This document shows, one piece after another, positions 2-55,242 of a stretch of DNA of 64,000 nucleotides; position 1 is the stretch's first letter; each line of letters begins with the position of its first letter. A program made the position numbers and the translations under genes. Under the pieces are notes generated by a model. That model was not told where the DNA came from, made no database searches, and saw nothing but the letters and a program-made list of their open reading frames with translations. This DNA is from Corynebacterium cystitidis (GTDB lineage: Bacteria; Actinomycetota; Actinomycetes; Mycobacteriales; Mycobacteriaceae). Where the stretch lies: positions 620,001 to 684,000 of the forward strand of contig NZ_LT906473.1 of assembly GCF_900187295.1 (NCBI RefSeq). The letters run 5' to 3'.

Positions 2-1237
2 AGCGTGCCCAATCCGGAGTTCTACCGCAAGCAAAACTCACGAATGTCCACGTATGGGACACCACGCATTATTACGCGGTGGGAGGAGCGCGATGATGAG
101 TTGGTGCTCCCGCGCGGGCTTGTCGACGATGCCGTCCACGTATTGGAACGGGCAGGGTATGAGGTGAACGTGTCGCGGCCGCGGCCGGCCAAGAAAATTG
201 CTGTGGAGTTCACCGGGACGCTGCGGCCAGAGCAGAAGAAGGCAGTGCGGGATGTGTGCGCTGATCCGGTGGGGATCCTGCTGGCGGACCCGGGGCAGGG
301 CAAGACGGTGATGGCGTGTGCGGTGATCGGCAATCGGAAGGTGCGCACGGCGATCGTCGTGAACCGGAAAGAGCTGCAGAAACAGTGGGAGTCGCGGCTG
401 GACACCTTTCTCGACTGTGTTGACGGCGTGGAGGTTGTGTCGCAGCAAGCGCTCGCGCGCTCGGGCCCGGGCTTGCTGGCAGAGTATGACCAGATCATTG
501 TGGACGAATGCCACGGAGCGGTCGGGCCGGCGACGGAAGCGGCTTTGAGTTCTGTGAAAGCGCGCTATTGGCTGGGGTTGACCGCGACGAACTACCGCTA
601 CGACAAGCTAGACCGGCTGATCAACTTCCAGTTCGGGCCCGTGCGGCATCACATGGTGCGCGAGACCGGGGTGGGCAAGCGGACTGTGATCGTGCGGCGC
701 ACACCGTTTAGCAGCGAAAGTGCAGATTTAGTAGAACTCTGTAACGAGATCGCCGAGGATTCTGCTCGGGTAGAACTGCTCGCCCAGGATGTGGCAGAAG
801 CGCTCGGCCAAGGGCGGTGCTGCCTGGTGCTAGTGAACAGGTTGGCGGGTGTAGACGCAATGTACAAGGCAGTAGTATCTGCCCTGGCGGGTGGCGCCGA
901 TAGTGAAATCCCCGTACTTACTATGACGGGAGCACAAACGACGGCGGAACGATCTGAGTTACGTAAGCAGTTAGAAGCACCGCAGTTGTGCTTAATCGCG
1001 ATGAACAAAACTGCCGGTGAGGGCCTAGATGTGCCACAGTTAGATGCGCTTTTTCTGGCCGCTCCATTTAGATTCAAAGGGCTGGTAGTACAGTACACGG
1101 GTCGCATCACCAGGCGCGATGACGTAGATGCAGTGGTGTACGACTACGTCGATACGGCAGTGCCGATGCTAAACCGGATGGCGGGAGGCAGACACCGGGA
1201 GATGAAGAAAATCGGGTGGGATGTCGTGGAAGGGTGA
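2..1237 (+). CDS. C-terminal helicase part of a TOTE-type primase-helicase (runs off left edge)
   Basis: A superfamily II helicase. The reading frame is open to the window edge, so the GTG at 5 is probably not the true start. The opening motif (NPEFYRKQNSRMSTYGTPRI, then LPRG) is what I know as the linker after the archaeo-eukaryotic primase domain in TOTE conflict-system proteins, which would lie upstream. Visible helicase motifs, counted from the GTG: Walker A GQGKT (about residue 97), DECH (about 168), GLTAT (about 190) and the motif VI-like QYTGRITRR near 365. Family members are thought to act in defence against mobile DNA. An ordinary UvrB/RAD25-like helicase is the alternative if no primase domain is found upstream. 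Confidence 0.75.
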   Translation, partial: SVPNPEFYRKQNSRMSTYGTPRIITRWEERDDELVLPRGLVDDAVHVLERAGYEVNVSRPRPAKKIAVEFTGTLRPEQKKAVRDVCADPVGILLADPGQGKTVMACAVIGNRKVRTAIVVNRKELQKQWESRLDTFLDCVDGVEVVSQQALARSGPGLLAEYDQIIVDECHGAVGPATEAALSSVKARYWLGLTATNYRYDKLDRLINFQFGPVRHHMVRETGVGKRTVIVRRTPFSSESADLVELCNEIAEDSARVELLAQDVAEALGQGRCCLVLVNRLAGVDAMYKAVVSALAGGADSEIPVLTMTGAQTTAERSELRKQLEAPQLCLIAMNKTAGEGLDVPQLDALFLAAPFRFKGLVVQYTGRITRRDDVDAVVYDYVDTAVPMLNRMAGGRHREMKKIGWDVVEG

Positions 1238-1696
1238 GTGTTTAGGCGTCGCATTGGTTGTACGGAAGCGATTAGGTCTGGTGACTGTCAGGATTTGTCA
1301 GGATTTGGGCGACTCAAACATGTATGTAGTGAAAACCTATCCTATGTTGGATCGCGTGCCGATGCGGAGGATCTCACCCAGGAAACGCTGTTAACCCTGT
1401 TGACTAAAACCCCATGTTTTAATGATGAGGAGCACGAGAAGGCGTGGGTGCTGCGAGTAGCGATCAATAAGTGCAAGGAGCATCTGCGCAAACATGCTCG
1501 ACTAGTGCCACTCGACGAGCAGGAACTAGCCGTGCGTCAACCTGTCGGAAATAAACACCACGGCGCCGTTGGGTGTCTGCCACCGTTTTCGGCTTTGGGG
1601 TGTCGGACATGGAAATGCTGGACACTATTGGCAGACCAATCAATGCACGCGATACGTAGGCGGGGTGACGATCAGCGCAGAGGCGATCATAGGTGA
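1238..1696 (+). pseudogene. ECF sigma factor remnant (region 2 only)
   Basis: Residues about 35-95 read as sigma-70 region 2 of an ECF factor: SRADAEDLTQETLLTLL, then FNDEEHEKAWVLRVAINKCK and HLRKHARLVPLDEQE. The first 30 residues do not look like a sigma N-terminus, and region 4, needed to bind the -35 element, is absent: after the linker the frame runs into DUF4179-type sequence out of frame. The normal length is about 165-190 residues. I read it as the debris of a deletion joining the sigma gene to its neighbouring anti-sigma gene. It is unlikely to make a working sigma factor. Confidence 0.6.
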
Positions 1697-2324
1697 CGAA
1701 AGTCAACTCGCAGTGCGCTATCGCATTGAGTTTGAGGAAGGCCGAGAAGTTCCCCGCACTATCGAGGAATTGCACTTTGGCTACCATGAACTTGAAGTGC
1801 GCGCGATGCAGGGAGGTGGATTGACCCACAGTGAATTCCATGATGAAAATTCAGGCGATAACGCTATCGTGTTCTTCAGCGATCTGCGGGATGGTCAAGA
1901 AGTGGTGGCACCCGGCCTGTGGAAAATGCGTTTTGAAATTAACTTTCCTGAAAATGGTCGTACGCTGAACATTGATGGCAGTACCGGCATTACTTAGGTA
2001 AGTGTGTTTCCAATCGCTTTGAGCTGGGACTTTGTTGAGCGTGAGGAGAATGGTGGCTATTGTCCACCAGTGATGTTGGAATTCGCGGATGGTTCCACTG
2101 ACACTTTCTGGGGTGGGCCCGGCGGTTTAAATAATGGAGTTAGGGTCCCCGGCTGGTCGTCGATAAGCGAAATAGCTGGGGGATTCCTCCCGAATTTCAT
2201 GGGCGTGCTCCAACTAGGCACGCGAATCAAAATTCTGGTGCACGACAATATCGTGAAGGTGTGGAGATTCAGCACCTTAAGGCCCGGTAAACCACTCCGA
2301 TTGTCCCCACGAGGCTGCGGTTAA
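1569..2324 (+). pseudogene. DUF4179-type anti-sigma extracellular domain, frameshifted and interrupted
   Basis: The frame from 1569 contains VGGVTISAEAIIGDESQLAV followed by RYRIEFEEG, the start of a DUF4179 extracellular domain found in membrane anti-sigma-like proteins encoded beside ECF sigma factors. Just upstream the family sequence (LDTIGRPINARDT) is in another frame, so a frameshift lies near 1655. An in-frame TAG at 1995-1997 separates this part from 2004-2324, which continues the same domain (PIALSWDFVE, then VMLEFADGSTDTFWGGPG). The cytoplasmic sigma-binding part and the membrane segment are missing. Together with the sigma remnant upstream this is a dead sigma/anti-sigma pair. Confidence 0.55.
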
Positions 2325-2360
2325 GGCACACCCCAAGGATTCACGGAGAAGATACCCTCG

Positions 2361-2391
2361 GCTAGCACGGCTAGCACGGCTAGCACGGCTA
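2361..2391. repeat. 9-bp tandem repeat, three and a half copies
   Basis: The unit GCTAGCACG is repeated three times head to tail, followed by a degenerate partial copy (GCTA then TCGCA). It lies in the gap between the anti-sigma remnant and the convergent membrane-protein gene. No function is evident; slippage could vary the copy number. Confidence 0.8.
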
Positions 2392-2455
2392 TCGCAGTCT
2401 AAAATTGCGGAAGTGCCGTGTCGGCTCTGGAATCAGGTAGCCTTTAGCGCAACCT

Positions 2456-6559: not shown

Positions 6560-6674
6560 GTTGACCCCTTTCGAAGCGGAAGCAACAGTGGGGCAGGGGG
6601 AATCGTCGTTAAGCGCGATGTGTAATACAAAGCGCAATGGTCGCCTCATCAACTAAGTGCGGTACGCTGCCAGC

Positions 6675-9063: not shown

Positions 9064-10088
9064 AGCGGCTAGCACTAACGATTATTCGGCTGGCAGGGCT
9101 GCTGCTGAGTGTCACACTCGTGGCATTCCTGCTTGTCGAGTTTTCGCCCTTGGACCCCATCGCGGAGTACATCAATGACCTGCAAGGGATCAGCGATGAG
9201 CAGATCGCCCAGATTGCTGCGCTGTGGGGGCAGGACCAACCGTGGTGGCAGCGCTACTTCGGCTGGCTGGGTGGGTTAATCACTGGTGACATGGGCACCA
9301 GCTACATGTACCGTCGTGATGTCGCCGACATCCTCGCCTACGCGGTGGGTAACTCGCTGATCCTCATGACGATTGCGTGGTCGCTTTCTGCCGTCCTCGG
9401 TTACAGCCTCGGAGTGGTGGCCGGCGCGCGCCGCGGTGGGATCTTCGACCGGATCATCGTCGCGGTGACCTACCTGCTCACCTCAACGCCAACATTCGTG
9501 GTAGGCCTCGTTCTCATCATGATTTTCGGCGTGTACTTGGGCTGGGTGCCCGTGGGGATGTCGCAACCATTGGGCATGCTTTCCGACGAAGTTACTTTCA
9601 CTGACCGCCTCCAACATGCAGTGATGCCGGCCATCACTGTGGCGCTGGTGGGTATTTCTTCGGTGACGCTGCACACTCGCCAGGCAATGGTGGCGTTTAT
9701 GGACTCTGACATTGTGCGCTTTGCCCGTTCCCGCGGGATGTCCACAGGTCAGATTGTGTGGCGCCAAGGTATCCGCAACACCATTATTCCGGCGATCATG
9801 CTGCAGTTCACCACGCTGTCATCCCTGGTGGGTGGCTCGGTGATGGCAGAGACCGTCTTCTCCTATCACGGCTTGGGCTCCATCATTACCCAAGCAGGCC
9901 TCAATGGTGATATCCCGCTGCTGCTGGGTGCTGTGGTGATCACCTCGATGGTGGTGTTTGTGGGAAACCTGCTGGCAGACGCCATCGCGGTGGCATTGGA
10001 GCCACGCATTCACAGCAGCAAACAAGCACAGGTAAAGGAGGACCGCGATGCGTTCGACCCTGTATCAGCCACGGCGCACCCTCAATAA
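9054..10088 (+). CDS. ABC transporter permease, OppB/DppB type
   Basis: A 344-residue inner-membrane permease with about six membrane segments and the BPD_transp_1 loop (VRFARSRGMSTGQIVWRQGI, the EAA-like cytoplasmic motif that docks the ATPase, about residues 220-240). It starts with a membrane helix followed by the family's external loop (DPIAEYINDLQGISDEQIA). The ATG overlaps the end of the binding-protein gene by ten bases. It pairs with the following permease to form the channel of the five-gene transporter. Confidence 0.88.
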   Translation: MELKRLALTIIRLAGLLLSVTLVAFLLVEFSPLDPIAEYINDLQGISDEQIAQIAALWGQDQPWWQRYFGWLGGLITGDMGTSYMYRRDVADILAYAVGNSLILMTIAWSLSAVLGYSLGVVAGARRGGIFDRIIVAVTYLLTSTPTFVVGLVLIMIFGVYLGWVPVGMSQPLGMLSDEVTFTDRLQHAVMPAITVALVGISSVTLHTRQAMVAFMDSDIVRFARSRGMSTGQIVWRQGIRNTIIPAIMLQFTTLSSLVGGSVMAETVFSYHGLGSIITQAGLNGDIPLLLGAVVITSMVVFVGNLLADAIAVALEPRIHSSKQAQVKEDRDAFDPVSATAHPQ

Positions 10089-11626: not shown

Positions 11627-12237
11627 GCCTGCATGCACACGACATTAGTTTCGCGTATCCCGGCGCTGGCGCTGCCACCGGGGCAGGCCCCATCCTGTGC
11701 GGGATTAATCTGGAGGTGCCGCCCGGTGTGGTTGTCGGCCTGCACGGCTACAGCGGTGCCGGTAAATCCACCCTGGCGAAGATTTTGGCCGGGCAATTGC
11801 TACCGGATGCAGGTCAGGTCACCGTTGACGGCCAACCGCTGCACCACGGCACGTACCTGCCTGTCCAATTGATTCAGCAGCACCCTGAGCGTGCCATTGA
11901 TGCCCGCTGGCGCCTGAACAAAGTTGTGCGGGGTATCTCGGCAGAGACTTTGGAGCGTATGGGTGTAGAGCCTGACTGGCTGGAGCGCTACCCTTTGGAG
12001 GTCTCGGGCGGCCAGCTGCAACGCATCAATATCTCACGCGCTTTAGATCCGCGCACCAAATACGTGGTGGCTGATGAAATCACCACCATGATGGACGCGC
12101 TGCTTCAGGCAGACATTTGGGCAGGGCTTATCGACGAAGTCCAGCGAAGGCAGCTCGGATTGTTAGTGATCTCGCACGACCATGACCTGCTGCGCCACGT
12201 GTGCGACCAGGTTGTGGCCTTGGACGAGCTGGGCTAG
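11623..12237 (+). CDS. ABC transporter ATPase, DppF type (short)
   Basis: A 204-residue ATP-binding subunit: Walker A GYSGAGKST (about residue 43), signature VSGGQLQRI (about 128), Walker B YVVADEITTMMDA and VISHDHD. The ATG overlaps the stop of the preceding ATPase (ATGA). Walker B reads ADEITTMMD where most paralogues have DEPTSALD, a feature of the nickel/metallophore group. It is the last gene of the operon; a 153-base gap follows before the next transporter. Confidence 0.85.
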   Translation: MSLHAHDISFAYPGAGAATGAGPILCGINLEVPPGVVVGLHGYSGAGKSTLAKILAGQLLPDAGQVTVDGQPLHHGTYLPVQLIQQHPERAIDARWRLNKVVRGISAETLERMGVEPDWLERYPLEVSGGQLQRINISRALDPRTKYVVADEITTMMDALLQADIWAGLIDEVQRRQLGLLVISHDHDLLRHVCDQVVALDELG

Positions 12238-12390: not shown

Positions 12391-13449
12391 ATGTCGCTTG
12401 CACAAAAGTCCACTTTGGGCGCCATCGCGCTAACCACCGCCATCACACTTGTGGCCTGCGGAGGTGAGACCGCCGACAATGGTGCCAGCGGATCGGGAGA
12501 GTCGTCGGCAAGCGACACTACTACCGCCGCTGCAAGCGACTTTGAGCCGGTGACCATTGATAACTGCGGCACCGAATTCACCATCGAGCAGGCCCCGCAG
12601 CGCGCGACCACCCTAGAGCAGGGCGCGACCGACACGCTGCTCATGCTCGGCGCGGCCGACCAGATCGCCGGCCACAGTCACTACAAATCGCACCCGCCGG
12701 CCGGCTACGAGGATGAAACCGAGCAGCTCACACTGATCAGTGAAGACCCAGCGACGTCCGAACAGCTGCGCGCAGCCGACACGGATTTCATCTACTCGCC
12801 ATTCGAACTGTCCTGGGACGAGTCCGGTGCCGGCACCCGCGAAGAATGGGCGCAGTTGGGCGTGCCCACCTTCAACAACAACACCGAATGCCAGGAATAC
12901 GGCGACAACAAGGGTAAGACCCAGTTTGAGCTGCTGGAGCGCGACTTCACCGAGCTCGGCCAGATTTTTGGGCGCCAAGACGAGGCTCAAGCGCTGATCA
13001 AGAAGCAAAACGAGGCGCTGGAAGACGCATCCGACACTCAAGCGCCAGAAGGCACCACGTTCATGATGCTGTACTCTGCCTATGAGTCAGATCCCTACGT
13101 GGCCGGTGGCCCATCGATCCTGACCGAGATGGGCGGGCTGTTCGGCATGACCAACGTTTTTGCCGATGTCGATGAGGAATGGCCCACCGTTTCCTGGGAG
13201 GCCGTCGCTGAGGCAAATCCTGACGTGATTATTCTCGGCGACCTACCTCTGCGTGGCTCACCTGGTGATAAGTGGGAAGAAAAGGTGGAAATCCTTGAAA
13301 CCACCCCCGCTGTGCAGAATATGGATGCGGTGAAGAACAAAAAATACATCGTAATTGATGGCATCACCGCGTCGGCGTCGGTACGCACCCACGAAGGCGT
13401 TGTAGAAATCGCAGATGCGCTGCGCGACGGCGTGCTCGACGACGACTAA
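12391..13449 (+). CDS. Siderophore/cobalamin-type ABC binding lipoprotein (FecB/BtuF fold)
   Basis: A 352-residue lipoprotein (signal ending TLVACGGE, Cys about residue 22) with a Ser/Thr-rich linker and a TroA-like two-lobed domain. Its start (DNCGTEFTIEQAPQRATTLE, then GATDTLLMLGAADQIAGHS) and the second-lobe sequence WPTVSWEAVAEANPDVIILG are typical of ferric-siderophore, haem or cobalamin binding proteins. ATG 12391 has AGAAGATT just upstream. The downstream permease and ATPase complete the importer. The exact ligand cannot be read from sequence. Confidence 0.85.
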   Translation: MSLAQKSTLGAIALTTAITLVACGGETADNGASGSGESSASDTTTAAASDFEPVTIDNCGTEFTIEQAPQRATTLEQGATDTLLMLGAADQIAGHSHYKSHPPAGYEDETEQLTLISEDPATSEQLRAADTDFIYSPFELSWDESGAGTREEWAQLGVPTFNNNTECQEYGDNKGKTQFELLERDFTELGQIFGRQDEAQALIKKQNEALEDASDTQAPEGTTFMMLYSAYESDPYVAGGPSILTEMGGLFGMTNVFADVDEEWPTVSWEAVAEANPDVIILGDLPLRGSPGDKWEEKVEILETTPAVQNMDAVKNKKYIVIDGITASASVRTHEGVVEIADALRDGVLDDD

Positions 13450-14476: not shown

Positions 14477-15312
14477 GCATCACTGTGCGCGACCTCGCCG
14501 TGAAATACGGCCGGAAAACAGTGGTCAGCGATATCTCATTGGATTTCTCCTCGCCCGGGGTCTACGGCATCGTGGGGCCCAACGGCGCCGGAAAGTCTAC
14601 GCTCATGCGCGCGGTCGCTGGAGTGCAGGATTTTTCCGGAACGGTGCTTTACGACGACCAACCATTGGTGGCGTATTCCCGAGCACAGCGCGTGGAAGTA
14701 TTGTCCTATATCGCCCAGTATTCCGGGCCGCCGATCTCGATGACGGTGCGCGACGTGGTTACGTTGGGCCGCACCGCAGGTAAGGGGTTGTGGCGGGGCA
14801 TGGATTCCGGTGACGAGGATGTGATTAACCAGTCGATGAATCACACCGATGTTTATGGGCTTGCTGACCGGCCGTTGGCTGAGCTGTCCGGTGGGCAGGT
14901 GCAACGCGTGATGTTGGCCCGCGCTATGGCCCAACAAGCCAGCCACATGCTGCTGGACGAACCCAATAATCACCTTGACCTGCAACACCAGTACAACTTG
15001 ATGAGCTTGCTCCGCCATTTTTCTCGCGAACACGGGGTTATCGTTCTTATCGCGATTCATGACATAGCGATGGCCGCCAGGTTCTGTGACTCCGTCGCCC
15101 TCATCGGTGAAGGCGGCATCCTGCTGGAAACCGGGCCTGCCGACGAAATCCTTACCCCTAATGCCCTAAAGGAGGTTTTTGGGGTACACGCCAAGCTAGT
15201 GGAGATCGCCTCTGGCCGGGTAGTGCTCGACGTCGAGGGCACCACCTTGCGAACGTGGGGCCCACACCTTGACCAGCCTCAAGCCCACCGCACGCCCCGC
15301 AGCCACGATTAA
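14473..15312 (+). CDS. FecE/BtuD-type ABC ATPase
   Basis: A 279-residue ATPase: Walker A GPNGAGKST (about residue 36), signature LSGGQVQRV (about 138), Walker B MLLDEPNNHLDL and IAIHDIAMAA. It overlaps the permease stop by four bases (ATGA). The C-terminal part (LKEVFGVHAKLVEIASGRVV) is the tail of the siderophore ATPase group. Last gene of the three-gene importer. About 225 bases of non-coding DNA follow, including copy B of the 66-bp repeat. Confidence 0.88.
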   Translation: MSITVRDLAVKYGRKTVVSDISLDFSSPGVYGIVGPNGAGKSTLMRAVAGVQDFSGTVLYDDQPLVAYSRAQRVEVLSYIAQYSGPPISMTVRDVVTLGRTAGKGLWRGMDSGDEDVINQSMNHTDVYGLADRPLAELSGGQVQRVMLARAMAQQASHMLLDEPNNHLDLQHQYNLMSLLRHFSREHGVIVLIAIHDIAMAARFCDSVALIGEGGILLETGPADEILTPNALKEVFGVHAKLVEIASGRVVLDVEGTTLRTWGPHLDQPQAHRTPRSHD

Positions 15313-21424: not shown

Positions 21425-21675
21425 GGCAACCACCGTACGCGCGAGTGGTGCTCGCTTCACGACGATCCCCTGAACCTCAAGTTTAGGTTGAGTAAATGGG
21501 GGGTGAAGTGCGACTTTAGGGTTGCCTATGTGGTGCAAGTGAAGCCAGAATCGAAACCACGACAGTGAGATTATTGAGGCCGTTGGGGAAGACGAACCTC
21601 GTCTCACAGGCGCCCATTCCGCATACGTGTGGGGTGGAGGTGTCTGTGCCTACTTTTCTACGAAGGGATCCCCAC

Positions 21676-24182: not shown

Positions 24183-24221
24183 CGTCGTGAAGCGCGATCT
24201 GCCGCGCACCAGAAACGCTAA

Positions 24222-39476: not shown

Positions 39477-40805
39477 ATGAATAGCCAACAGGAATATGTC
39501 CTCAGCGCGGTCGAAGAACGCGGTATCCGATTCATCCGGCTTTGGTTTACCGACATCTCCGGCAGCCTCAAATCTGTCATGATGAGCCCTTTAGAGCTGG
39601 AAGGCGCGTTTGAGGAAGGCGTTGGCTTTGATGGCTCTTCCATTGAGGGTTTTTCGCGCATTAGCGAATCTGACACGCTGCTGCTGCCAGACCCCTCCAC
39701 CTTCCAAATCCTGCCGTTTGATGCTGATGAACCAGACCTGATTTCCGCGCGCATGTTTTGTGACATTTCCATGCCGGACGGTAACCCTTCTTTTGCGGAT
39801 CCGCGCCATGTGCTGCGCCGCCAAGTGGACAGGGCTGCCGACGAAGGTTTTACCTGTAACGTCGGCCCCGAGATTGAGTTTTACCTGGTCAACCGTGAGA
39901 ACAGGGAAGTGCCTGTGGATTCCGGTGGCTATTTTGACCAGTCTGCGTATAATCGCGCACCGAAGTTTCGTCGGGAAGCGATTCATGCCCTGGAATCGAT
40001 GGGCATTACCACCGAGTTTTCCCATCATGAAACGTCGCCCGGCCAGCAGGAGATTGACCTGCGCCATGCAGACGTGCTCACCATGGCCGATAACGTGGTG
40101 ACCTTCCGCTACCTGATCAAAACGGTGGCCGCCAACTCTGGGGTGCGCGCCACGTTCATGCCCAAGCCGTTTAAGGAGCACGCGGGTTCGGCGATGCACT
40201 CGCACTTTTCTTTGTTCGAGGGCGATACCAACGCGTTCCACGACCCGGATGATGAGATCTCCCTGTCGGCGACAGGCCGCCGCTTCGTGGCAGGCATTTT
40301 GGTGCATGCCCATGAGATTTCGGCGGTGACCAACCAGTTTGTCAACTCGTATAAACGCCTCGAGTTCGGCGCCGAGGCACCCACCGCCGTGACCTGGGGT
40401 ATTTCCAACCGTTCGGCGCTGGTGCGCGTGCCGACGTACCGCCTGAACAAGCCTGCATCGCGGCGGGTGGAGGTACGTTCCCCAGATTCCGGCGCGAACC
40501 CCTACCTGGCGTATGCAGCCATTTTGGCTGCTGGGCTGAAAGGGATCCGCGAGGAGTACACCTTAACCGAGCCCGCCGAAGATGACGTGTTTGCGTTGAC
40601 CCGCCGTGAGCGCCGCGCCATGGGCTACCGTGATCTGCCTGGCAGCTTGGATGAGGCGCTGCGCCACCTGGAGAAGTCCGAGTTCATGGCGGAGGTGCTT
40701 GGAGAGCAGGTGTTTGAATACTTCCTGCGCTCCAAATGGCGTGAATGGCGCGAGTACACAGACCAGATCACCGAGTGGGAATTAGCCACCAATTTCAACA
40801 TCTAA
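39477..40805 (+). CDS. glnA2: Glutamine synthetase, GlnA2 type
   Basis: A 442-residue class I glutamine synthetase making glutamine from glutamate, ammonia and ATP. Motifs: FDGSSIEGF (about residue 50), the glutamate-binding NPYLAYAAIL and GSAMHSHFSLF. The C-terminus lacks a recognisable adenylylation Tyr in the NLFELP context, as in other GlnA2. It lies just before glnE, the usual order in actinobacteria. A TACAGT -10-like hexamer is 16 bases before the ATG, inside the 32-base gap to the divergent CHAD gene. Confidence 0.92.
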   Translation: MNSQQEYVLSAVEERGIRFIRLWFTDISGSLKSVMMSPLELEGAFEEGVGFDGSSIEGFSRISESDTLLLPDPSTFQILPFDADEPDLISARMFCDISMPDGNPSFADPRHVLRRQVDRAADEGFTCNVGPEIEFYLVNRENREVPVDSGGYFDQSAYNRAPKFRREAIHALESMGITTEFSHHETSPGQQEIDLRHADVLTMADNVVTFRYLIKTVAANSGVRATFMPKPFKEHAGSAMHSHFSLFEGDTNAFHDPDDEISLSATGRRFVAGILVHAHEISAVTNQFVNSYKRLEFGAEAPTAVTWGISNRSALVRVPTYRLNKPASRRVEVRSPDSGANPYLAYAAILAAGLKGIREEYTLTEPAEDDVFALTRRERRAMGYRDLPGSLDEALRHLEKSEFMAEVLGEQVFEYFLRSKWREWREYTDQITEWELATNFNI

Positions 40806-40827: not shown

Positions 40828-43800
40828 GTGGCACGCAGCAACCAACCGTCCCCGGCTGTACTGGGTCTGACCAGTGAACACGCCGCCGCAGACCTGGAGG
40901 CTCTAGGCTGGGACAGTGATGCCTTGCGCTGGACTTTGGCGGGTTGTGGCGACCCAGACCTCGCTTTGAATACTGCCCGCCGACTGCGCGACAACCTCGG
41001 CGAGGGTTACGGCGGGCTGCTCCGCGCGCTTGACGACGATGACACTTTGCGCACCCGTTTCATGGCACTGCTGGGTGGTTCTTCGGCGCTGGGCGACCAC
41101 CTGGCCGCCCACCCGGAATTGTGGAAAGAGTTGCAGCGGCCTAGCCCCACACGCGAAGAGCTGTTTGAGACCATGCTGGGCGCGGTCGGTGCCGTCGCTG
41201 ACGCGTCTGCGACGACTGTGGGCACTGGGCCGGGGACCTACCGCGCCGAACTGGAAGGAAAAGACGCTAAAAACGCTCTGCGCATGGCGTATCGCACCCT
41301 TATGATGCGTGTCGCCGCCGCTGACTTGGCGGGCACGTTCGCCGCGCGCAAGGGATTCGGCGCGAATGAACCCCGCCTCGAATTTACAGACGTGACGCAG
41401 CTGCTCACCGACGCAGCCGATGCCGCCTTGACCGCGGCGCTGGCGGTGGCGGTGCGCACTGTTTACGGCGACGAGGAGCCGGATACCCGCCTGGGCGTGA
41501 TTGCCATGGGAAAGTGTGGCGCCCAGGAACTGAACTACATCTCCGATGTGGATGTGATCTTTGTCGCCGAACCCGCTACCACCAAGGCCACACGCTTAGC
41601 CAGCGAGTTCAACCGCATCGGCTCTGCGTGTTTCTTCGAGGTGGACGCCAACCTGCGCCCGGAGGGTAAGTCTGGTGCGTTGGTGCGCACCGTCGATTCC
41701 CACGTGGCCTACTACAAGCGGTGGGCCGAGACGTGGGAGTTCCAGGCGCTGCTGAAGGCCCGCCCCATGACGGGCGACATGGAGCTGGCCCGCGAGTACA
41801 CAAAGGCCGTCGACCCGATGGTGTGGGAGGCCTCCACCCGCGACAGCTTTGTCGATGACGTGCAAGCTATGCGCCGCCGCGTGCTGGACACCGTGCCCGC
41901 CGACATGCGCGACCGCGAGCTCAAGCTGGGCAACGGCGGCTTGCGCGACGTGGAGTTCGCCGTGCAATTACTCCAGCTTGTCCACGGGCGTTTCGACGAG
42001 GGCCTCAGGGTGCTCAACACCGTCGAAGCACTCCGCGCGCTCTCCGATGGTGGCTATATCGGGCGCAGCGATGCCGCCAGCCTCATCGAGGCCTACGAGT
42101 TTCTCCGCCTGCTGGAACACCGCCTGCAGCTGCACCGCTTCCGCCGCACCCATGCCCTGCCCGCTGAAGAGCACACGGAAGCGCGGAAATGGCTGGCCAC
42201 CACCGCCGGGTTTACCGCCACGGTGGCGCACAGTGCGGTGGAAGAGCTAGACAAACACCTTCGTGACGTACGCCGGCGCGTATCCAACTTGCACGCCAAG
42301 TTGTTCTACCGCCCGCTGCTGAACTCTGTGGCGCAGCTTAGCGCGGACGAGGCGTCGTTAAGCGCCCAATCAGCGAAACTGCAGTTGGCGGCGCTGGGCT
42401 ACCTGCACCCGGAGCGTGCGTTGGAGCACCTGAACGCGCTGGCCAAGGGTGCTAGCCGCAAGGCGAAACTGCAGGCGATCCTGCTGCCCACGCTGATGGA
42501 GTGGCTGTCAGAGACCGCGGACCCAGATGCCGGTCTGCTCAATTACCGCAAGTTGTCCGATGCCGCGTTTGACCGCACCTGGTTTTTGCGCATGCTTCGC
42601 GACGAAACCATCGTGGGCAAACGCCTGATGACAATCCTGGGCACCTCGCCTTTCACATCAGACCTGATTATCCGCGCGCCGGACGTCGTTAAGCTCTTAG
42701 GCGATGGTGCGAAGCAGCCCCGGCTACTCGATGCGGCGCCGGACCAGGTGTTCAAGGCGATCATCGCGGCCTCGAAACGCCACCACGACCCGGATAAAGC
42801 TGTAAACGCGGCGCGTGCTTTACGACGCTTCGAGCTGGCGCGCATTGCCTCTGCCGACCTGCTGGGGTTGATGGATGTGCGCCAGGTATGCGACGAGCTG
42901 ACCTGGGTGTGGCGCGCTGTGCTGCAAGCCGCACTACTCGCGGAAGTACGCGCTGAACTGGCTGAACGTGGAGCAGAGGAGCCACTGGCACGCATTTCTG
43001 TGATTGGTATGGGCCGGTTGGGTGGCAATGAGCTGGGTTATGGTTCTGACGCGGATGTGATGATTGTGGCCGAACCTACCGCCGGTGTTGAGGAATCGGA
43101 AGCGCTGGGCTGGACCACGAAGATTATTGATCAATTGCGCAGGCGCCTGTCCAAGCCGTCGGGGGACCCACCACTAGAGGTGGACTTGGGGCTGCGGCCT
43201 GAGGGCAGGTCCGGCCCTGTGGCCCGCACCGTAGGGTCCTACGAGCGCTACTATGACCAGTGGGCAGGCGTGTGGGAAAAACAAGCACTGCAGCGTGCCA
43301 CCCATGTGGCTGGTGACAAGGAGCTTTCGACGAAATTTCTGCAGGCCATTGACCGTTTCCGGTATCCGGCTGGCGGAGCAAGTCAGGCCGATATTCGCGA
43401 AATCCGCCGCATCAAAGCACGCGTAGATAATGAACGGTTGCCGCGTGGCGCCGACCGCAACACCCACACCAAACTGGGCCGCGGGGGTCTGACCGACGTG
43501 GAGTGGACCGTGCAACTGCTCACGATGATGCATGCCGACGAGTACCCGCAGCTGCACAACACCTCCACCTTGGACGTGTTGGATTTTTTGGCCACTGGAG
43601 AGGCCGCCGAAATAATTGCACCTGAACAGGTGGAATCTCTCAAGGCGGCGTGGCTGCTAGCTACTGACGCCCGCAATGCGCTGGTACTTGTGCGCGGCAA
43701 ACGTGCCGACCAGCTACCCAGCCCCGGCCCGCAGCTGGCTCAGGTTGCTGGTGCGTTGGGGTATGCCCCCCACAATAACCAGGAATTCTTGGAGGACTAC

Positions 43801-44252: not shown

Positions 44253-45620
44253 TCAGTCGCCGTGGCGTGGTTCTTGGTCATCAACGATGACCACGGGGCC
44301 GGACGATGTCACGGCTGCCTCTGTGCGTTTCAGCACGACACGGGCAATAATCAAGCCGACCATGCCTACCGCCCACACGGAGAAGACGGCTAGCCAGGCA
44401 AAGCGGAAGTCAGCCCACTGGTATTCCAACCCGTGGGAGGAGTAATCCAGCATCACTCCCATTAGCTGGGCGGCCAGCATGCCTGCGATAAATCCGCCCA
44501 TATTGGCCATGCCGGTACCTGTCGCAACCACCGAACGCGGCAGTTTTTCGCGCACAGAGTCAAAACCGTAGTTGGCGGCTGGGGTTAAGATTCCGATGAA
44601 CAGCTGCATCACAATCACCGCGGCCACAGTACGCGGGGTAGGGGACCACAAGAACACGACCCAGCCCACCGAGTGCACCAGGGAAAAGAGGATGCCAGCG
44701 AGCTCGCGGCGCTGACCCGCACGCGAGGAGACAGCACCCATGAAGGGCCCGGCCAGCATGGTCACTACGGTGTTGATCACGAGCACCGTGCCCGCAAGTG
44801 GCTCGGAAAGTCCCATGCCCAGCGTCATCAGTGGAACACCCCACAGCAGGGAAAACACCAGCATGTACACCATGGACACCCAGTGCAGGAAGAAAGCCTG
44901 CCAGCACACCGCGGACCTAAACACGGTTTTCAGCGCGCTGCTTAAGGAAAGCCGTTCGGCGCGTTGGCGGGCGCGCTCCTGCATTTCTTCGCCGCGGGAG
45001 CCCTCCGGTGTGTCAGACACAGCGACGATGGCCGCCAGGCACACCAGCACTCCCGTAGCACCAAGGCTTAAAAACGCCACGGTCCAGCCGGAGGTGTTTA
45101 ACAGCCAGAGGAAAGGTACCGCCGAGAGGAACTGGCCTACTTGTCCACAGGCAGAGGTGAGTTGGGTAAACAGGGGTGTTTTCTTCATGGGGAACCAGTA
45201 CGGGAGGATGCGCATCACGGAAAGGAACCCGGTGGCGTCGCCCAGCCCGATGAGAACGCGGGCACCAATGGCTACCCAGTAGCTCGTCGTTAAGCCCAAG
45301 ATCGTTTGGCCTACAGCCATGATCAGCGCGCCGATCACCAGCATTTTACGGGGCCCGAAGCGGTCGATCAGCAGGCCCATGGGGATCTGGGCCAGCGCGT
45401 ATACGCCGATCTGTACTGCGGTGAACACCGCGATGCGGGAGGCGTCCACCTCGAAGCGTTCGATGGCATCCACGCCGGCCACGCCGAAAGAGGTCCGGCC
45501 TAAAATGGCCACGATGTAGACAGCCAGCGCCGCCACCCACACGGTAAGTGCTTTGGTGGTAACAACGTCGCGGGGGTTGGGGCGCGGGTTCGGTCGCGGT
45601 GCAGGCTGGGATTTAGGCAT
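44253..45620 (-). CDS. MFS transporter
   Basis: A 455-residue membrane protein with about 12 helices. The loop after helix 2 reads GLLIDRFGPRKML (about residue 75), the MFS motif A. The first half carries GRTSFGVAGVDAIERFEVDA and SAVPFLWLL segments; a longer charged loop (EEMQERARQRAERLS) links the halves. Substrate unknown. ATG 45620 (MPKSQPAPRPNPRPN) is used; an earlier start at 45713 would overlap the divergent thrC start. Confidence 0.85.
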   Translation of the reverse strand: MPKSQPAPRPNPRPNPRDVVTTKALTVWVAALAVYIVAILGRTSFGVAGVDAIERFEVDASRIAVFTAVQIGVYALAQIPMGLLIDRFGPRKMLVIGALIMAVGQTILGLTTSYWVAIGARVLIGLGDATGFLSVMRILPYWFPMKKTPLFTQLTSACGQVGQFLSAVPFLWLLNTSGWTVAFLSLGATGVLVCLAAIVAVSDTPEGSRGEEMQERARQRAERLSLSSALKTVFRSAVCWQAFFLHWVSMVYMLVFSLLWGVPLMTLGMGLSEPLAGTVLVINTVVTMLAGPFMGAVSSRAGQRRELAGILFSLVHSVGWVVFLWSPTPRTVAAVIVMQLFIGILTPAANYGFDSVREKLPRSVVATGTGMANMGGFIAGMLAAQLMGVMLDYSSHGLEYQWADFRFAWLAVFSVWAVGMVGLIIARVVLKRTEAAVTSSGPVVIVDDQEPRHGD

Positions 45621-45673: not shown

Positions 45674-47119
45674 GTGGATTATATTTCAACTCGCGATTCT
45701 TCCCGTACCCCATCTAAGTTCACCGATACTTTGCTCGGTGGACTCGCCCCGGACGGCGGGCTGTACATGCCGGTTCAGTATCCAGAGCTTGACGACGACA
45801 CCTTGAGCCAGTGGCGCACGCTACTAGAGGAGAAGGGTTATGCGGCGTTGGCTGCTGAGGTGCTGAAGCTGTATATCGATGACATTCCGCACGAAGATAT
45901 CGAGGCGATTACGGCGCGTGCCTACCGCACCCCAAATTTTGCGACTGAGGCGATTGTGCCGGTTTCGCGTGTCGACAACCACCTCATGATTGCCCACTTG
46001 TCCGACGGGCCGACGGCCGCGTTTAAGGATATGGCGATGCAGTTGCTCGGGGAGCTGTTCGAGTACGAGCTGGGCCGGCGTTGTGAGACCATCAATATTT
46101 TGGGTGCGACGTCGGGTGATACTGGGTCATCGGCGGAGTATGCGATGCGCGGGCGTACCGGGATCCGCGTGTTTATGTTGACTCCGGCAGGGCGGATGAC
46201 GCCGTTTCAGCAGGCGCAAATGTTCGGTTTGGATGATCCGAATATCTTTAACATCGCTTTGGATGGCGTGTTTGATGACTGCCAGGATGTAGTCAAGGCC
46301 GTCAATGCTGATGCTGAGTTCAAGGCAAAGTACCGCATTGGCGCGGTCAACTCGATTAATTGGGCGCGCTTGTTGGCGCAGACGGTGTACTATATTTCCA
46401 CGTGGCTGCGCGTGACTGAGTCGAATGATCAGAAAGTGTCCTTTAGCGTTCCTACCGGTAACTTTGGTGATATTTGCGCCGGCCATATTGCGCGCCAGAT
46501 GGGGCTGCCGATTGACCGCTTGATTGTGGCTACTAACGAAAATGACGTGCTCAATGACTTTTTCACCACCGGCAAGTACATTCCGCGCTCGGCGGCTGAA
46601 ACTCTGGCGACTTCGTCGCCGTCGATGGATATTTCCAAGGCGTCGAACTTTGAGCGCTTTGTTTTCGACCTGTTGGACCGTGACGCCACGCGTATCGACG
46701 AGCTCTTCGGCACGGCGGTGAACACCGGCGGTTTCTCCCTGGAAGATGATGTCACCCGTTCGAAGGTGCGCGATGAGTTCGGGTTTTACTCGGGCAAGTC
46801 CACACACTTGGACCGCGTTGCCACAATCAAGGCGTTGCACGAGGCGTTCGACATCATCATCGACCCGCACACAGCGGACGCAGTGAAGGTTGCCCGCGAG
46901 TGGGAAGACGAAACTGACACCCCGATCGTGGTGCTGGAGACGGCGCTGCCAGTGAAGTTCTCTGAGACCATTGTGGAATCAATCGGGCAGGAGCCGGAGA
47001 TCCCTGAGCGCTTCGCGGATATTATGGGCGCAGATCGCCACGTGGCTGATATGCCGAATGATGCCGAAAAGGTGAAGGAATTCATCGCAGAATCCATTGC
47101 CAAGTCAGACGTTAAGTAA
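45674..47119 (+). CDS. thrC: Threonine synthase
   Basis: A 481-residue PLP enzyme that converts O-phosphohomoserine to threonine. Start GTG 45674 gives VDYISTRDSSRTPSKFTDTL, matching the usual N-terminus. The Schiff-base Lys is in TAAFKDMAMQLLG (about residue 117), and the phosphate-binding GATSGDTGSSAEYA lies at about 148. The length equals that of the C. glutamicum enzyme as I know it. It is monocistronic by layout, separate from hom-thrB. Confidence 0.96.
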   Translation: MDYISTRDSSRTPSKFTDTLLGGLAPDGGLYMPVQYPELDDDTLSQWRTLLEEKGYAALAAEVLKLYIDDIPHEDIEAITARAYRTPNFATEAIVPVSRVDNHLMIAHLSDGPTAAFKDMAMQLLGELFEYELGRRCETINILGATSGDTGSSAEYAMRGRTGIRVFMLTPAGRMTPFQQAQMFGLDDPNIFNIALDGVFDDCQDVVKAVNADAEFKAKYRIGAVNSINWARLLAQTVYYISTWLRVTESNDQKVSFSVPTGNFGDICAGHIARQMGLPIDRLIVATNENDVLNDFFTTGKYIPRSAAETLATSSPSMDISKASNFERFVFDLLDRDATRIDELFGTAVNTGGFSLEDDVTRSKVRDEFGFYSGKSTHLDRVATIKALHEAFDIIIDPHTADAVKVAREWEDETDTPIVVLETALPVKFSETIVESIGQEPEIPERFADIMGADRHVADMPNDAEKVKEFIAESIAKSDVK

Positions 47120-48413: not shown

Positions 48414-49151
48414 TTAGCGGGCCCAGCGCTGGTCGAATGCCTCGTTGGCCGGCGACTCCTTCCTCGTTGGCTTGCCACCTTCTTCAAAATCCACAACTTG
48501 GATGGAATCCGGGCCGTAGAGGCTTAGCGAGATCAGTTCGATGTCCTTATCCCCGGTGATCACGGTCCACTTCTTTTCAATTTCGGCCTGTTCGCGGTCT
48601 GTGTCAGCAAACCACGTATAGAAGACTTCTTTGTCGTGGTTGCTGCCAGGAAAGTCGAGAATGGCTAGCGAGTCGGCGCCGGTTACCCTGGCGTCGGTGA
48701 TCAGTTTTTCGAGCTGCTCTGGTGGCATCGAGCTATAACAGAACCCCCAGAAATCTAGCTGCATGTTGTCCGGGGTCTCGAGGGCCAGGTTTGTCAGGCA
48801 GGTGCTCATGAGCAGTTGATCGATGTGGATGGCTAAAGCGCTGGGGTTGGCGTCGGCTGCTTCGGTGAGCATCCCTTCGAGCCGGAGTCCGTTTTGGGCG
48901 GGAGCCGCGCTCGCTTCGTCGATAAGCCATGGCTGAACCAATCCAAGGGTGGCCTGTGGGTCTGTCTCAAATGTTGGCCCAGCGCTGTTCTTCTTCTCTT
49001 TGGGTTGCGGCGTTGCTTCGCTACTGGCTTCGTGGTTGACAAGCAGGACGATTAACACCACAGCGGAGATGAGGAGCACCCCGTAGCCCAACACGAACAC
49101 TGGTGCAGGCAGTATGCGGCGGGGCTTCGCGGGCGTTATCGAGGTGCTCAT
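48414..49151 (-). CDS. Membrane-anchored protein of unknown function, 245 residues
   Basis: A short N-terminus, one helix (about residues 17-40, VFVLGYGVLLISAVVLIVLL), a Lys-rich linker and an extracytoplasmic domain with two or three cysteines (TCLTNLALE, GFCYSSMP). No family known. The domain order and cysteine spacing recall the next gene at 49222, which suggests divergence after duplication. Confidence 0.7.
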   Translation of the reverse strand: MSTSITPAKPRRILPAPVFVLGYGVLLISAVVLIVLLVNHEASSEATPQPKEKKNSAGPTFETDPQATLGLVQPWLIDEASAAPAQNGLRLEGMLTEAADANPSALAIHIDQLLMSTCLTNLALETPDNMQLDFWGFCYSSMPPEQLEKLITDARVTGADSLAILDFPGSNHDKEVFYTWFADTDREQAEIEKKWTVITGDKDIELISLSLYGPDSIQVVDFEEGGKPTRKESPANEAFDQRWAR

Positions 49152-51206: not shown

Positions 51207-51932
51207 ATGGCAACAAAGATCGAGACTGAAAACACCGACACCACGCTCGCGCCCCTCGACACCACCGGTGTTGAGCGCATCTTGTGCGTTGTCGCCCACC
51301 CGGATGACCTGGAATACGGCATTTCTGCGGCCGTGGCCGCCTGGACTGCTAAAGGCATCACGGTGGACTACCTGCTGCTGACTGCTGGCGAGGCCGGCAT
51401 GCAGCGCCCACCGGCCGAAGTAGGCCCGCTACGTGCCAAAGAACAGCAGCGGGCCTGCGACATTGTCGGCGTTACTGAGCTGCGGATTCTTGACTTTCCC
51501 GATGGGCTGATGGAATACGGCATCCCCGTACGTAAGGCGATCGCGGAGGCGATCCGTGAGCTCAAGCCCGACTGGGTTGTTACCTCTAACTTTGACCTTG
51601 AGGCGCCTTGGGGCATCAACCATGTTGACCACCGCGTGACCGGCAAGGCCACAGCTGATGCGGTCCGCGATGCGGGCAATAAGTGGCTTTTCGACGATCT
51701 AGGCGCCCCACACGCGGCCTCCAAGTTCTTGGTAGGCGGTGTGACTGATCCTACCCACTACCAGGATGTGGCGGGGGAGTTCTTTGACAAGGGTGTGGCC
51801 TCACTTGCCGCCCACAAAGAATATTTGGCTGACCTACCAAATCACCCGAGCCCGCAGGAAGTGCTCGAGTTTGCTACGCGCCCTGCTGGCGATTCGGAGT
51901 GTGCGATGTGCTTTAAGGTGTGGGATATGTAA
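51207..51932 (+). CDS. PIG-L family N-acetylglucosaminyl deacetylase
   Basis: A 241-residue zinc-dependent deacetylase. Zinc ligands are in VVAHPDDLEYG (about residue 33, HPDD) and the later HVDHR (about residue 140). This family includes MshB and Mca, which deacetylate a precursor in or detoxify via mycothiol; this one is shorter and I cannot assign the substrate. ATG 51207 is 32 bases after the Nudix stop, so the two may be cotranscribed. Confidence 0.85.
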   Translation: MATKIETENTDTTLAPLDTTGVERILCVVAHPDDLEYGISAAVAAWTAKGITVDYLLLTAGEAGMQRPPAEVGPLRAKEQQRACDIVGVTELRILDFPDGLMEYGIPVRKAIAEAIRELKPDWVVTSNFDLEAPWGINHVDHRVTGKATADAVRDAGNKWLFDDLGAPHAASKFLVGGVTDPTHYQDVAGEFFDKGVASLAAHKEYLADLPNHPSPQEVLEFATRPAGDSECAMCFKVWDM

Positions 51933-54259: not shown

Positions 54260-54267
54260 GCTTGAAA

Positions 54268-54295
54268 GTATTGTATAAACGCAATAATCTGTCAA
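54268..54295 (-). promoter_or_regulatory. Candidate promoter of the HTH/membrane gene pair
   Basis: TTGACA (54295-54290) is followed 14-16 bases on by TACAAT/AATACT (54275-54268), 10-15 bases before the ATG. The spacing is shorter than the ideal 17, so strength is uncertain; a short leader is implied. Confidence 0.35.
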
Positions 54296-54450
54296 GGTTT
54301 CCGATGACGAAACTTGAAGGGCAAGTGTCGGTGGAACGGCCCGGGATAGGCGTTGAGGAAGCAGGCGGATAACGGCCGAACCGGAAGTAAGCAGGGGTAG
54401 AAAAAGAAAGAGCCTTCCCCGCGGCTGCCATTTGGTGCCACAATGGAGTT

Positions 54451-54879
54451 ATGGCTACTAATGAAGAAATTATCCGGAACCTGACAGAGGAAGAGTCCCT
54501 CGAACTCATGGCTGGCCAGACGTTTGGGCGCCTAGTGGTTCAGCTCAAAAATGATGTTGATATCTTCCCGGTAAACTTTGCGGTCCATGACGGCAAGATC
54601 TACTTCCGCACTGCCGAAGGAACCAAACTATTCGGCGCTGCTCGCGCCGACGATCTCATCCTCGAAGCAGACCACGTTGATCAGGACGCCAGTGTGGCGT
54701 GGTCGGTCGTTGTGAGGGGGCCGTCGCGGATTCTGACCAAAGCCGATGAAATCCTCGAGGCTGAAGAATACGGCGTCAAGCCTTGGATCCCAACACTAAA
54801 ATACAACTTCGTGGAAATCACCCCGCGCACAATCTCCGGCCGCGAATTCCAGCTCGGTGAGGAACCAGAGCGCTACTAA
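54451..54879 (+). CDS. Pyridoxamine 5'-phosphate oxidase-fold protein
   Basis: A 142-residue split-barrel protein. The N-terminal ESLELMAGQTFGRLVVQLKN and DIFPVNFAVHDGKIYFRTAE are typical of the small flavin/F420-binding oxidases, with the T-E-G-T segment after the third strand. ATG 54451 has GGAG in front. The cofactor and substrate cannot be told. It stands alone, convergent to nothing for 360 bases. Confidence 0.85.
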   Translation: MATNEEIIRNLTEEESLELMAGQTFGRLVVQLKNDVDIFPVNFAVHDGKIYFRTAEGTKLFGAARADDLILEADHVDQDASVAWSVVVRGPSRILTKADEILEAEEYGVKPWIPTLKYNFVEITPRTISGREFQLGEEPERY

Positions 54880-55242
54880 AGCCTGAACGCTTTTACCCGA
54901 GCGCTTTAAAACGTCAGACGGTTACTGAAACCTGCTTGGCCACAGAAGTGTGATCGGTGGGTGCAGTGGTCGTCGATAAGCGATAAGGGCAGGCGACAAT
55001 GGGCCCATAACCTCCGGGCAGGAAGTCTAGGGCCGCTCTATGCTGGGGCATCCCTGGGGTCGCCGTACCCACGAAACTACTTCTCGCTCAATCTTCAGAT
55101 TCCCCAACCACAGGTCAGGAGATTTGAAACCTGCCTTAGATCCAAACTGTGTAGCGCATTTCATAGGGACATTGTGGGCTGGGAATTTGCTATGTAAGTG
55201 TCTTGGATTTCTCACTCAGCGGGTAAGTATGGAGGCCAGAAG
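54880..55242. other. Intergenic stretch without genes
   Basis: No frame here has a start, ribosome site and balanced composition. It contains one exact copy of the over-represented 12-mer TCGTCGATAAGC (54970-54981). It marks the border between the core region and the mobile flank. Confidence 0.6.
54970..54981 (+). repeat. Copy of the 12-mer TCGTCGATAAGC in an intergenic site
   Basis: The one exact copy I see in clearly non-coding DNA (followed by GATAAG, a partial repeat). Other exact copies are listed in the findings, mostly within genes. Confidence 0.8.

What the first reader, a model, noticed from the sequence alone, without database searches (positions are those of the whole stretch)
118..54981. 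Over-represented, strand-biased 12-mer family TCGTCGNNAAGC
Exact TCGTCGATAAGC occurs eight times: plus strand 2157, 17143, 33424, 48916, 54970; minus strand 12126, 31268, 36258 (plus a near copy at 5620). TCGTCGTTAAGC occurs at 6603, 37250, 45284 (+) and 22833 (-). TCGTCGGCAAGC occurs at 12502, 18880, 24631, 31198 (+). Chance gives about 0.008 copies of one 12-mer in 128 kb of strand. Variants with AC or GT also occur (118 and 19244 minus, 20379 and 28862 plus). Of the 16, 12 are on the plus strand. It resembles a polar chromosome motif (KOPS- or AIMS-like) or an uptake or methylation signal.
Basis: seen in the sequence. Interest (0 to 1): 0.75.

Follow-up and report, generated by a model that had tools for sequence, protein, structure and literature searches.

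The report
Likely DNA-uptake signature of Corynebacterium
Short DNA words scattered through most sampled Corynebacterium genomes, often a thousand times each, look like the "own-DNA" tags that two families of Gram-negative bacteria use to choose which loose DNA to take in; uptake itself has not been tested.

Summary
The repeat is real and larger than reported: 33 copies of TCGTCGNNAAGC in the window against 0.17 by shuffling, and 1,301 in the genome, 649 forward and 652 reverse, against 15 for the reversed pattern. The strand bias came from an incomplete list (17 plus, 16 minus). It is not AIMS/KOPS: a known corynebacterial AIMS word lies 28:1 on the G-rich strand of the same stretches, the motif 67:76. 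Codon usage does not explain it: 186 coding copies against 6 after synonymous shuffling.

The site is non-palindromic and extended, about 1 per kb, changes by substitution and is kept between species: 29 of 38 in C. pilosum against 36 of 238 for permuted motifs. Four long motif-free gaps exist, three with mobile, RHS or restriction genes. Of 242 Corynebacterium genomes, 167 carry CGTCGNNAAGC at 5x control or more and 17 others CATCGNNAAGC; none of 395 other actinobacterial genomes comes near. Best reading: a DNA uptake sequence, which would be a third lineage and the first in Gram-positives, probably read by the Tad/Flp-ComEA-ComEC apparatus. Receptor unknown.

The parts
118..129 (-). core site TCGTCGACAAGC
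2157..2168 (+). core site TCGTCGATAAGC
6603..6614 (+). core site TCGTCGTTAAGC
9578..9589 (-). core site TCGTCGGAAAGC
12126..12137 (-). core site TCGTCGATAAGC
12502..12513 (+). core site TCGTCGGCAAGC
14646..14657 (-). core site TCGTCGTAAAGC
17143..17154 (+). core site TCGTCGATAAGC; kept in C. pilosum
18260..18271 (-). core site TCGTCGTCAAGC; kept in C. pilosum
18879..18890 (+). core site TCGTCGGCAAGC; not kept in C. pilosum
19244..19255 (-). core site TCGTCGACAAGC; kept in C. pilosum with a changed free base
20379..20390 (+). core site TCGTCGACAAGC; kept in C. pilosum
21454..21465 (-). core site TCGTCGTGAAGC
22833..22844 (-). core site TCGTCGTTAAGC; kept in C. pilosum
23810..23821 (-). core site TCGTCGTCAAGC
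24182..24193 (+). core site TCGTCGTGAAGC
24631..24642 (+). core site TCGTCGGCAAGC; not kept in C. pilosum
26821..26832 (+). core site TCGTCGAGAAGC; kept in C. pilosum
28862..28873 (+). core site TCGTCGGTAAGC; not kept in C. pilosum
31198..31209 (+). core site TCGTCGGCAAGC; kept in C. pilosum
31268..31279 (-). core site TCGTCGATAAGC; kept in C. pilosum
32311..32322 (-). core site TCGTCGGAAAGC; not kept in C. pilosum
33424..33435 (+). core site TCGTCGATAAGC; kept in C. pilosum
36258..36269 (-). core site TCGTCGATAAGC
37250..37261 (+). core site TCGTCGTTAAGC
39968..39979 (+). core site TCGTCGGGAAGC
41028..41039 (-). core site TCGTCGTCAAGC
42594..42605 (-). core site TCGTCGCGAAGC
45284..45295 (+). 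core site TCGTCGTTAAGC
45787..45798 (-). core site TCGTCGTCAAGC
48916..48927 (+). core site TCGTCGATAAGC
51686..51697 (-). core site TCGTCGAAAAGC
54970..54981 (+). core site TCGTCGATAAGC; all 62 matches of the window to the wider form CGTCGNNAMGY, these 33 included, are listed
55646..64000 (.). motif-free island (Abi_2 gene across its edge, N6/N4 DNA methylase, BamHI-type endonuclease)

Best explanation
The repeat is a DNA uptake sequence (self-recognition tag) of Corynebacterium. A DNA receptor of a natural-transformation apparatus, most likely a minor pilin of the Tad/Flp pilus (TadE or TadF) or ComEA, would bind the site NCGTCGDHAMGY with its G-rich upstream flank on double-stranded DNA in either orientation. 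DNA that carries it would be taken in preferentially through ComEC and recombined, so alleles with a site are over-transmitted and sites build up by substitution to about one per kb. When the receptor's preference shifts, the genome's sites follow, giving dialects (TCGTCG, GCGTCG, NCGTCGATAAGC, GCATCG forms). Shown here: number, symmetry, extended consensus, turnover by substitution, conservation between two species, dialects, absence from islands, presence of Tad/ComEA/ComEC genes. Inferred: that cells take up DNA at all, that uptake is biased, which protein reads the site, and the drive that spreads it.
For:: 33 in the window against 0.17; 1,301 in the genome (649/652) against 15 for the reversed control; 186 of 217 sampled copies lie in called genes against 6.0 (max 15) in 30 synonymous-codon shuffles; all six frames and 30 between genes; extended consensus, seen also at the 59 intergenic sites; 29 of 38 sites match in C. 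pilosum at 77% identity against 36 of 238 for 150 permuted motifs; 2 of 38 overlap a gap (permuted 15 of 238); of 20 kept sites 7 differ only at free or two-letter positions; 167 of 242 genomes with CGTCGNNAAGC at 5x control or more (median 1,094), strands balanced in all 167; 17 of the other 75 with CATCGNNAAGC; dialects in named species; 4 motif-free gaps of 8 kb or more against 0.16 expected, three with transposase, RHS or restriction genes. Tad/Flp, ComEA and ComEC genes. PMC4322843 (abstract and passages): tad genes are required for transformation of the actinobacterium Micrococcus luteus.
Against: Our paper searches (listings only, 20 of 314 and 12 of 495 in the last two) showed no report of natural transformation of a Corynebacterium, so competence is inferred from genes. 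ComEC and Tad ATPase are nearly universal in the genus (241 and 235 of 242) although 58 of 242 genomes bear neither dialect, so gene presence does not predict the motif; and of the 7 genomes without a Tad ATPase above cut-off, 5 are motif-rich (G021, G238, G239, G259, G267; all drafts, some incomplete), while G255, the one without ComEC, bears the CATCG form. Inverted pairs, common in Neisseriaceae and Pasteurellaceae, are not enriched (31 against 28.6) and spacing is not even (CV 1.15). Residues that follow the dialect do not single out a receptor. ComEC of this genome (546 aa) scores below the NCBIfam ComEC/Rec2 cut-off (77 against 190 bits) and ComEA below the comE model (83 against 152), though their domain models pass. 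C. phocae, C. spheniscorum and C. uropygiale have the genes but few or no sites. With C. lubricantis 0 of 10 sites are shared in 7.6 kb.
Confidence: 0.75

Rival explanations
1. A recombination or repair hotspot (Chi-like) recognised by a helicase-nuclease such as AdnAB, which would spare and recombine own DNA.
For: Dense, characteristic of the genus, missing from islands.
Against: Chi sites are shorter and biased to the leading strand (recalled); here 67 against 76 and strands balanced in all 167 genomes. Corynebacteria are reported to lack recBCD (passage of PMC3350403). AdnAB was not looked for here.
Confidence: 0.09
2. Binding sites of an abundant chromosome-organising or nucleoid-associated protein, spread over the whole chromosome.
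For: Even strands and wide spread; slightly fewer sites near the presumed terminus.
Against: Copy number falls to background in 58 of 242 congeners and the core switches between close relatives, which an essential architectural site should not do; no excess of pairs or regular spacing.
Confidence: 0.09
3. A restriction-modification, BREX-like or other DNA-modification motif.
For: No methylome was available.
Against: Such motifs are usually not enriched genome-wide and have no long partly specified flank (recalled); dialects would require a swap of the system with re-enrichment of some thousand sites each time.
Confidence: 0.04
4. A by-product of codon usage or of common peptides (for example Leu-x-Asp-Asp/Glu on the opposite strand).
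For: 109 of 217 copies lie in one antisense frame.
Against: 186 coding copies against 6.0 with the same proteins and codon usage; intergenic copies show the same flanks; related genomes without the motif.
Confidence: 0.01
5. A polar segregation motif (KOPS/AIMS).
Against: No strand bias; AIMS is another word and is polar in the same stretches.
Confidence: 0.01

Closest known systems
USS of Pasteurellaceae (AAGTGCGGT and ACAAGCGGT)
   Same: Hundreds to thousands of copies, origin by mutation rather than copying, clade-specific dialects, discontinuous extended consensus of about 30 bp (PMC1626085 abstract; PMC12616744 introduction read).
   Different: Unrelated sequence; the partly specified flank is G-rich and upstream, not AT-rich and downstream; host is an actinomycete with a Tad/Flp pilus; no excess of inverted pairs; uptake not shown.
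DUS of Neisseriaceae
   Same: Genome-wide tag with dialects that share an inner core; there read by the minor pilin ComP (PMC12616744 introduction read).
   Different: Unrelated sequence; DUS is continuous; no ComP was sought or found here and the receptor is unknown.
AIMS/KOPS of Corynebacterium, (T/C)GGGGGAG
   Same: Short, genome-wide, same genus.
   Different: AIMS is strand-polar (28:1 in these stretches), the present motif is not (67:76).
Chi sites
   Same: Would also mark own DNA.
   Different: Chi is leading-strand biased (recalled); corynebacteria are reported to lack recBCD (passage of PMC3350403).

Membership tests
DNA uptake sequences (DUS/USS) | Hundreds to thousands of copies, far above expectation, in both orientations | tested here: met
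DNA uptake sequences (DUS/USS) | Non-palindromic core of about 9-12 nt, with dialects that keep an inner core | tested here: met
   TCG..A.G kept, CG/CA before it varies
DNA uptake sequences (DUS/USS) | Sites arise by substitution, not insertion | tested here: met
   2 of 38 sites overlap a gap, permuted motifs 15 of 238
DNA uptake sequences (DUS/USS) | Dialects follow the phylogeny | tested here: inconclusive
   the CGTCG form is clustered (5 changes against 11.2 shuffled), but the GCATCG form needs 3 changes among 3 rows
DNA uptake sequences (DUS/USS) | Inverted pairs as terminators (frequent, not defining) | tested here: not met
   31 pairs within 60 bp against 28.6 expected, orientations even
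DNA uptake sequences (DUS/USS) | Host has a DNA-uptake apparatus | tested here: met
   by homology only; also present in species without the motif
DNA uptake sequences (DUS/USS) | DNA with the site is preferentially bound and taken up | not testable with these tools
   Needs an uptake assay
DNA uptake sequences (DUS/USS) | A receptor whose specificity follows the dialect | tested here: inconclusive
   no Tad or Com protein stands out
KOPS / AIMS | Strand bias that follows the direction of replication | tested here: not met
   67 against 76, with AIMS as positive control 28 against 1; replichores judged by GC skew only
Chi | Bias to the leading strand | tested here: not met
Chi | Attenuates the host's recombination nuclease | not testable with these tools
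   A passage of PMC3350403 says corynebacteria lack recBCD; AdnAB not looked for
HIP1-like palindromes | Palindromic word (recalled) | tested here: not met
   The consensus is not palindromic

The most novel reading that the evidence does not exclude
Most Corynebacterium species practise self-selective natural transformation: a Tad/Flp-pilus system in a Gram-positive genus reads an extended, dialect-bearing uptake sequence that evolved independently of those of Neisseriaceae and Pasteurellaceae, and the motif-free species have lost or never gained this selectivity.
Probability: 0.65. Interest if true: 0.95.

Novelty: new variant of a known kind. Interest (0 to 1): 0.9.

Why it matters
A 2025 paper names Neisseriaceae and Pasteurellaceae as the only families known to choose DNA at the binding step by a short genomic motif (PMC12616744, introduction read). 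A third, independent case in a Gram-positive genus would show that self-tagging evolves repeatedly and with another pilus class, would imply natural transformation, present or past, in 184 of the 242 genomes sampled (76%), and would give a practical key to transforming corynebacteria (put the species' own site on the DNA). Dialect switches between relatives offer a natural experiment for finding the receptor.

Tried and rejected
Polar motif and codon by-product: rejected. Inverted pairs and even spacing: not found. ComEC or Tad ATPase presence as predictor of the motif: not discriminating. HHH_3 as a proxy for ComEA: uninformative, because the listed best matches lie in frames of about 750 aa or more (Tex-like, recalled). 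A first reading that C. mastitidis lacks TadE/TadF was wrong: about 3.8 kb with a transposase-like gene (judged by eye) separates TadC from Flp, and TadE and TadF lie behind it. A first reading that C. spheniscorum ComEA is split was an edge effect of my stretch and was dropped (whole gene). Receptor by dialect-following residues: ComEA A218S occurs in 9 of 9 CATCG genomes with data but also in C. pilosum; with the same 9 genomes the share of such columns is highest in Flp (9.7%) and TadF (8.5%) and lowest in TadE (1.1%), which I do not regard as a signal. Papers printing the word: 28 hits, 15 listed, none on Corynebacterium by title. PMC5217627 (passages) searched spaced motifs in C. aurimucosum and two other species and in those passages names only CRISPR repeats; PMC2267715 (passages) counts stem-loop families of C. 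diphtheriae only.

Rows dropped: of the 80 loci, 76 were named and 50; 26 were left out because of the limit of 50 and 4 were never named. Searches used 48 genomes (the window's and 47 of those 50). Sites close to stretch ends were left out of the flank tables; the first 8 kb of L150 were left out because they overlap L087. Searches scanned 20 of the 31 genes called in the five gaps outside the window, four window genes. The 17 of 75 tally rests on counts typed.
Full report
WHAT IS THERE. The window lies in a 3,011,567-base single-contig genome (C1:620001-684000). Its pyruvate dehydrogenase E1 (AceE) is 97% identical to that of Corynebacterium pilosum, with C. lubricantis next, so it is a Corynebacterium close to C. 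pilosum. TCGTCGNNAAGC occurs 33 times in the window, 17 plus and 16 minus, against 0.17 expected, and 1,301 times in the genome, 649 forward and 652 reverse, against 15 for the reversed pattern.

THE TRUE SITE. I took 20 stretches of 20 kb spread over the genome and with the window studied 464 kb. Letting each core position vary shows that position 0 prefers T but tolerates G (18x expected; A 10x, C 9x), that the second A of AAGC may be C (23x) and that the last C may be T (11x); no other single change exceeds about 4x. An iterated weight matrix settles on 434 sites in 464 kb at a threshold that gives 10 in simulated DNA. The consensus is T(>G)-CGTCG-[AGT]-[CTA]-A-A(>C)-G-C, then mostly G, then rarely G, with an upstream part rich in G at -4, -7 and -10 and almost without T at -7 and -10. 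Part of the three-base rhythm upstream reflects codons, since half the sites (109 of 217) lie in one antisense frame, but the same preferences appear at the 59 intergenic sites. With CGTCGNNAMGY there are 491 sites in 487.5 kb, 1.0 per kb, which extrapolates to roughly 3,000 in the genome; the window has 62.

NOT CODING, NOT POLAR. Of 217 core copies, 186 lie inside called genes; 30 rounds of synonymous-codon shuffling, which keep every protein, give 6.0 on average and at most 15. Copies occur in all six frames and between genes (30 of 217; 19% of the sample is intergenic). In the 14 of 21 stretches with clear GC skew, 67 lie on the G-rich and 76 on the C-rich strand (p=0.5). As a positive control, the AIMS words reported for C. 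resistens (passages of PMC3350403) lie 28 to 1 and 17 to 3 on the G-rich strand in the same stretches. The first genes of the contig are sulfur-assimilation genes (by eye), not dnaA, so replichores were judged by skew alone.

KEPT BY SELECTION OR DRIVE. Over 29,459 columns aligned to C. pilosum at 77% identity, 29 of 38 sites of the window's genome match the motif in C. pilosum too; for 150 permuted motifs pooled it is 36 of 238 (15%). Only 2 of 38 sites overlap a gap (permuted: 15 of 238), so sites come and go by substitution, not insertion. In a slightly smaller alignment 20 of 27 were kept, 7 of these with changes only at free or two-letter positions, and 8 were private to C. pilosum; with C. 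lubricantis none of 10 was shared in 7.6 kb.

DISTRIBUTION AND DIALECTS. Over 242 Corynebacterium genomes, CGTCGNNAAGC is at least five times its control in 167 (median 1,094 copies, 195 to 1,964), two to five times in 10 and below twice in 65; none of the 167 shows strand imbalance beyond |z|=3. Of 396 genomes across the phylum (the window's own and 395 others) only the window's own stands out; the best of the others, by eye, reach about 4.3 times control with 100-140 copies. In codon-shuffle scans of sampled stretches, words of the motif head the list in the five motif-bearing species, and C. phoceense showed another form, GCATCGGNAAGC. Counting CATCGNNAAGC over the genus, 17 of the 75 genomes outside the 167 have at least 200 copies and five times control, up to 1,337. 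Only one of these (G112) also has many CGTCG copies (352). Thus 184 of 242 bear one form or the other and 58 bear neither. Among named species C. phoceense (14 TCGTCG, 511 GCATCG copies), strain J010B-136 (41, 490) and C. macginleyi (9, 230) have the second form, while near relatives such as C. tuberculostearicum (107, 55) keep mainly the first. Finer differences exist: T before CGTCG in the window's genome, G in the C. tuberculostearicum and C. aurimucosum samples, no fixed base but a preferred ATAAGC in the C. glaucum and Marseille-P4321 samples. On an AceE tree of 42 rows (41 Corynebacterium, one Dietzia) the CGTCG form is clustered (5 changes against 11.2 shuffled), and one clade (C. variabile, C. 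glyciniphilum, C. kalidii, ACRPH; support 97/97) lacks both forms; motif-bearers (TAE3-ERU12, C. glucuronolyticum) also fall outside it, on a weakly supported fork, so early origin with losses or repeated gain are both open.

ISLANDS LACK IT. Four motif-free gaps of 8 kb or more occur in the 487.5 kb against 0.16 expected. One is the end of the window, with an Abi_2 protein, an N6/N4 methylase and a BamHI-type endonuclease. Two others hold Mutator-type transposases, one of them with an RHS-repeat gene; in the fourth the genes scanned gave DUF3558, a molybdopterin/cytochrome b561 protein and two without a match. The fifth gap (7.0 kb) is the conserved qcr/cta respiratory region, so strongly constrained genes also lack sites.

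MACHINERY. The genome has comEA and comEC side by side (C1:470155-472599) and a Tad/Flp locus ssd-tadA-tadB-tadC-flp-tadE-tadF (C1:2366455-2371046). NCBIfam models match above cut-off for TadA, Ssd, the Rv3654c-type TadE-like protein (here TadF), the ComEA helix-hairpin-helix region and the ComEC N-terminal region; the full-length ComEC and ComEA models and the TadE model match below cut-off, and TadB, TadC and Flp match none and are named by position and similarity. All 12 motif-rich genomes first examined, the window's included, have all seven Tad genes. But ComEC (241 of 242) and the Tad ATPase (235 of 242) are nearly universal in the genus, so they do not discriminate. Two observations hint at decay: C. 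mastitidis (15 copies) has about 3.8 kb inserted inside the tad operon while its sister C. lowii (75 copies) has all seven genes within the 11 kb fetched, and C. phoceense has truncated comEA, comEC and tadC beside a still abundant second form. C. phocae, C. spheniscorum and C. uropygiale have the genes and few or no sites, against a simple link.

RECEPTOR. I compared Tad proteins of 27 CGTCG and 15-17 CATCG genomes and Com proteins of 27 and 9. No protein stands out by residues that follow the dialect. Minor pilins are favoured only by analogy with ComP and the proposed ComN (PMC12616744).

READING. What sequence can show fits an uptake sequence as described for Pasteurellaceae and Neisseriaceae (PMC1626085 abstract; PMC12616744 introduction). 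Two common traits of those, inverted pairs at terminators and dialects strictly by clade, are absent or unclear. What is missing is the defining experiment, preferential uptake. I therefore say it works like an uptake sequence and probably is one (0.75), and do not claim membership as shown. Paper searches (listings, partly capped) showed no report of uptake sequences in Corynebacterium or other Actinobacteria in the library held, which lacks most subscription journals.

Noticed in passing
464 kb sample of the window's genome; C. gallinarum, C. glaucum, C. phoceense and C. glyciniphilum samples: The AIMS word (T/C)GGGGGAG is strongly polar here (28:1), and TGGGGGAG is among the most over-represented words of the four other samples.
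   Followed up: partly
window:55243-62968: Island with an Abi_2 protein, a possible transposase without a Pfam match (57824-59182), an N6/N4 methylase and a BamHI-type endonuclease.
   Followed up: partly
L084:16034-19594 and L093:10464-13775: Two similarly arranged motif-free loci pair a DUF3558 gene with a large protein (609 and 592 aa) without a Pfam match; the two large proteins were not compared.
   Followed up: no
C. variabile, C. glyciniphilum, C. kalidii, strain ACRPH: The motif-free clade has a longer ComEC frame (701-739 aa against about 460-580 in motif-rich species) and TadB and TadC hits in one frame of about 360-400 aa.
   Followed up: no
genome G112 (unnamed, 2.45 Mb): The only genome of the 242 with both forms in quantity: 1,337 CATCGNNAAGC and 352 CGTCGNNAAGC; perhaps a dialect switch under way.
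   Followed up: no
window's genome, stretches at about 1.15-1.92 Mb: Core density looks lower near the presumed terminus (43 in 120 kb against 174 in 344 kb elsewhere, summed from the table).
   Followed up: no
C. spheniscorum sample (L121-L125, L025): Other over-represented words (GATCATCC, CGCTTTCG) and interrupted palindromes, without the motif.
   Followed up: no
L142:9592 (Marseille-P4321): One perfect inverted pair of the motif, 26 bp long, although pairs are not enriched overall.
   Followed up: no
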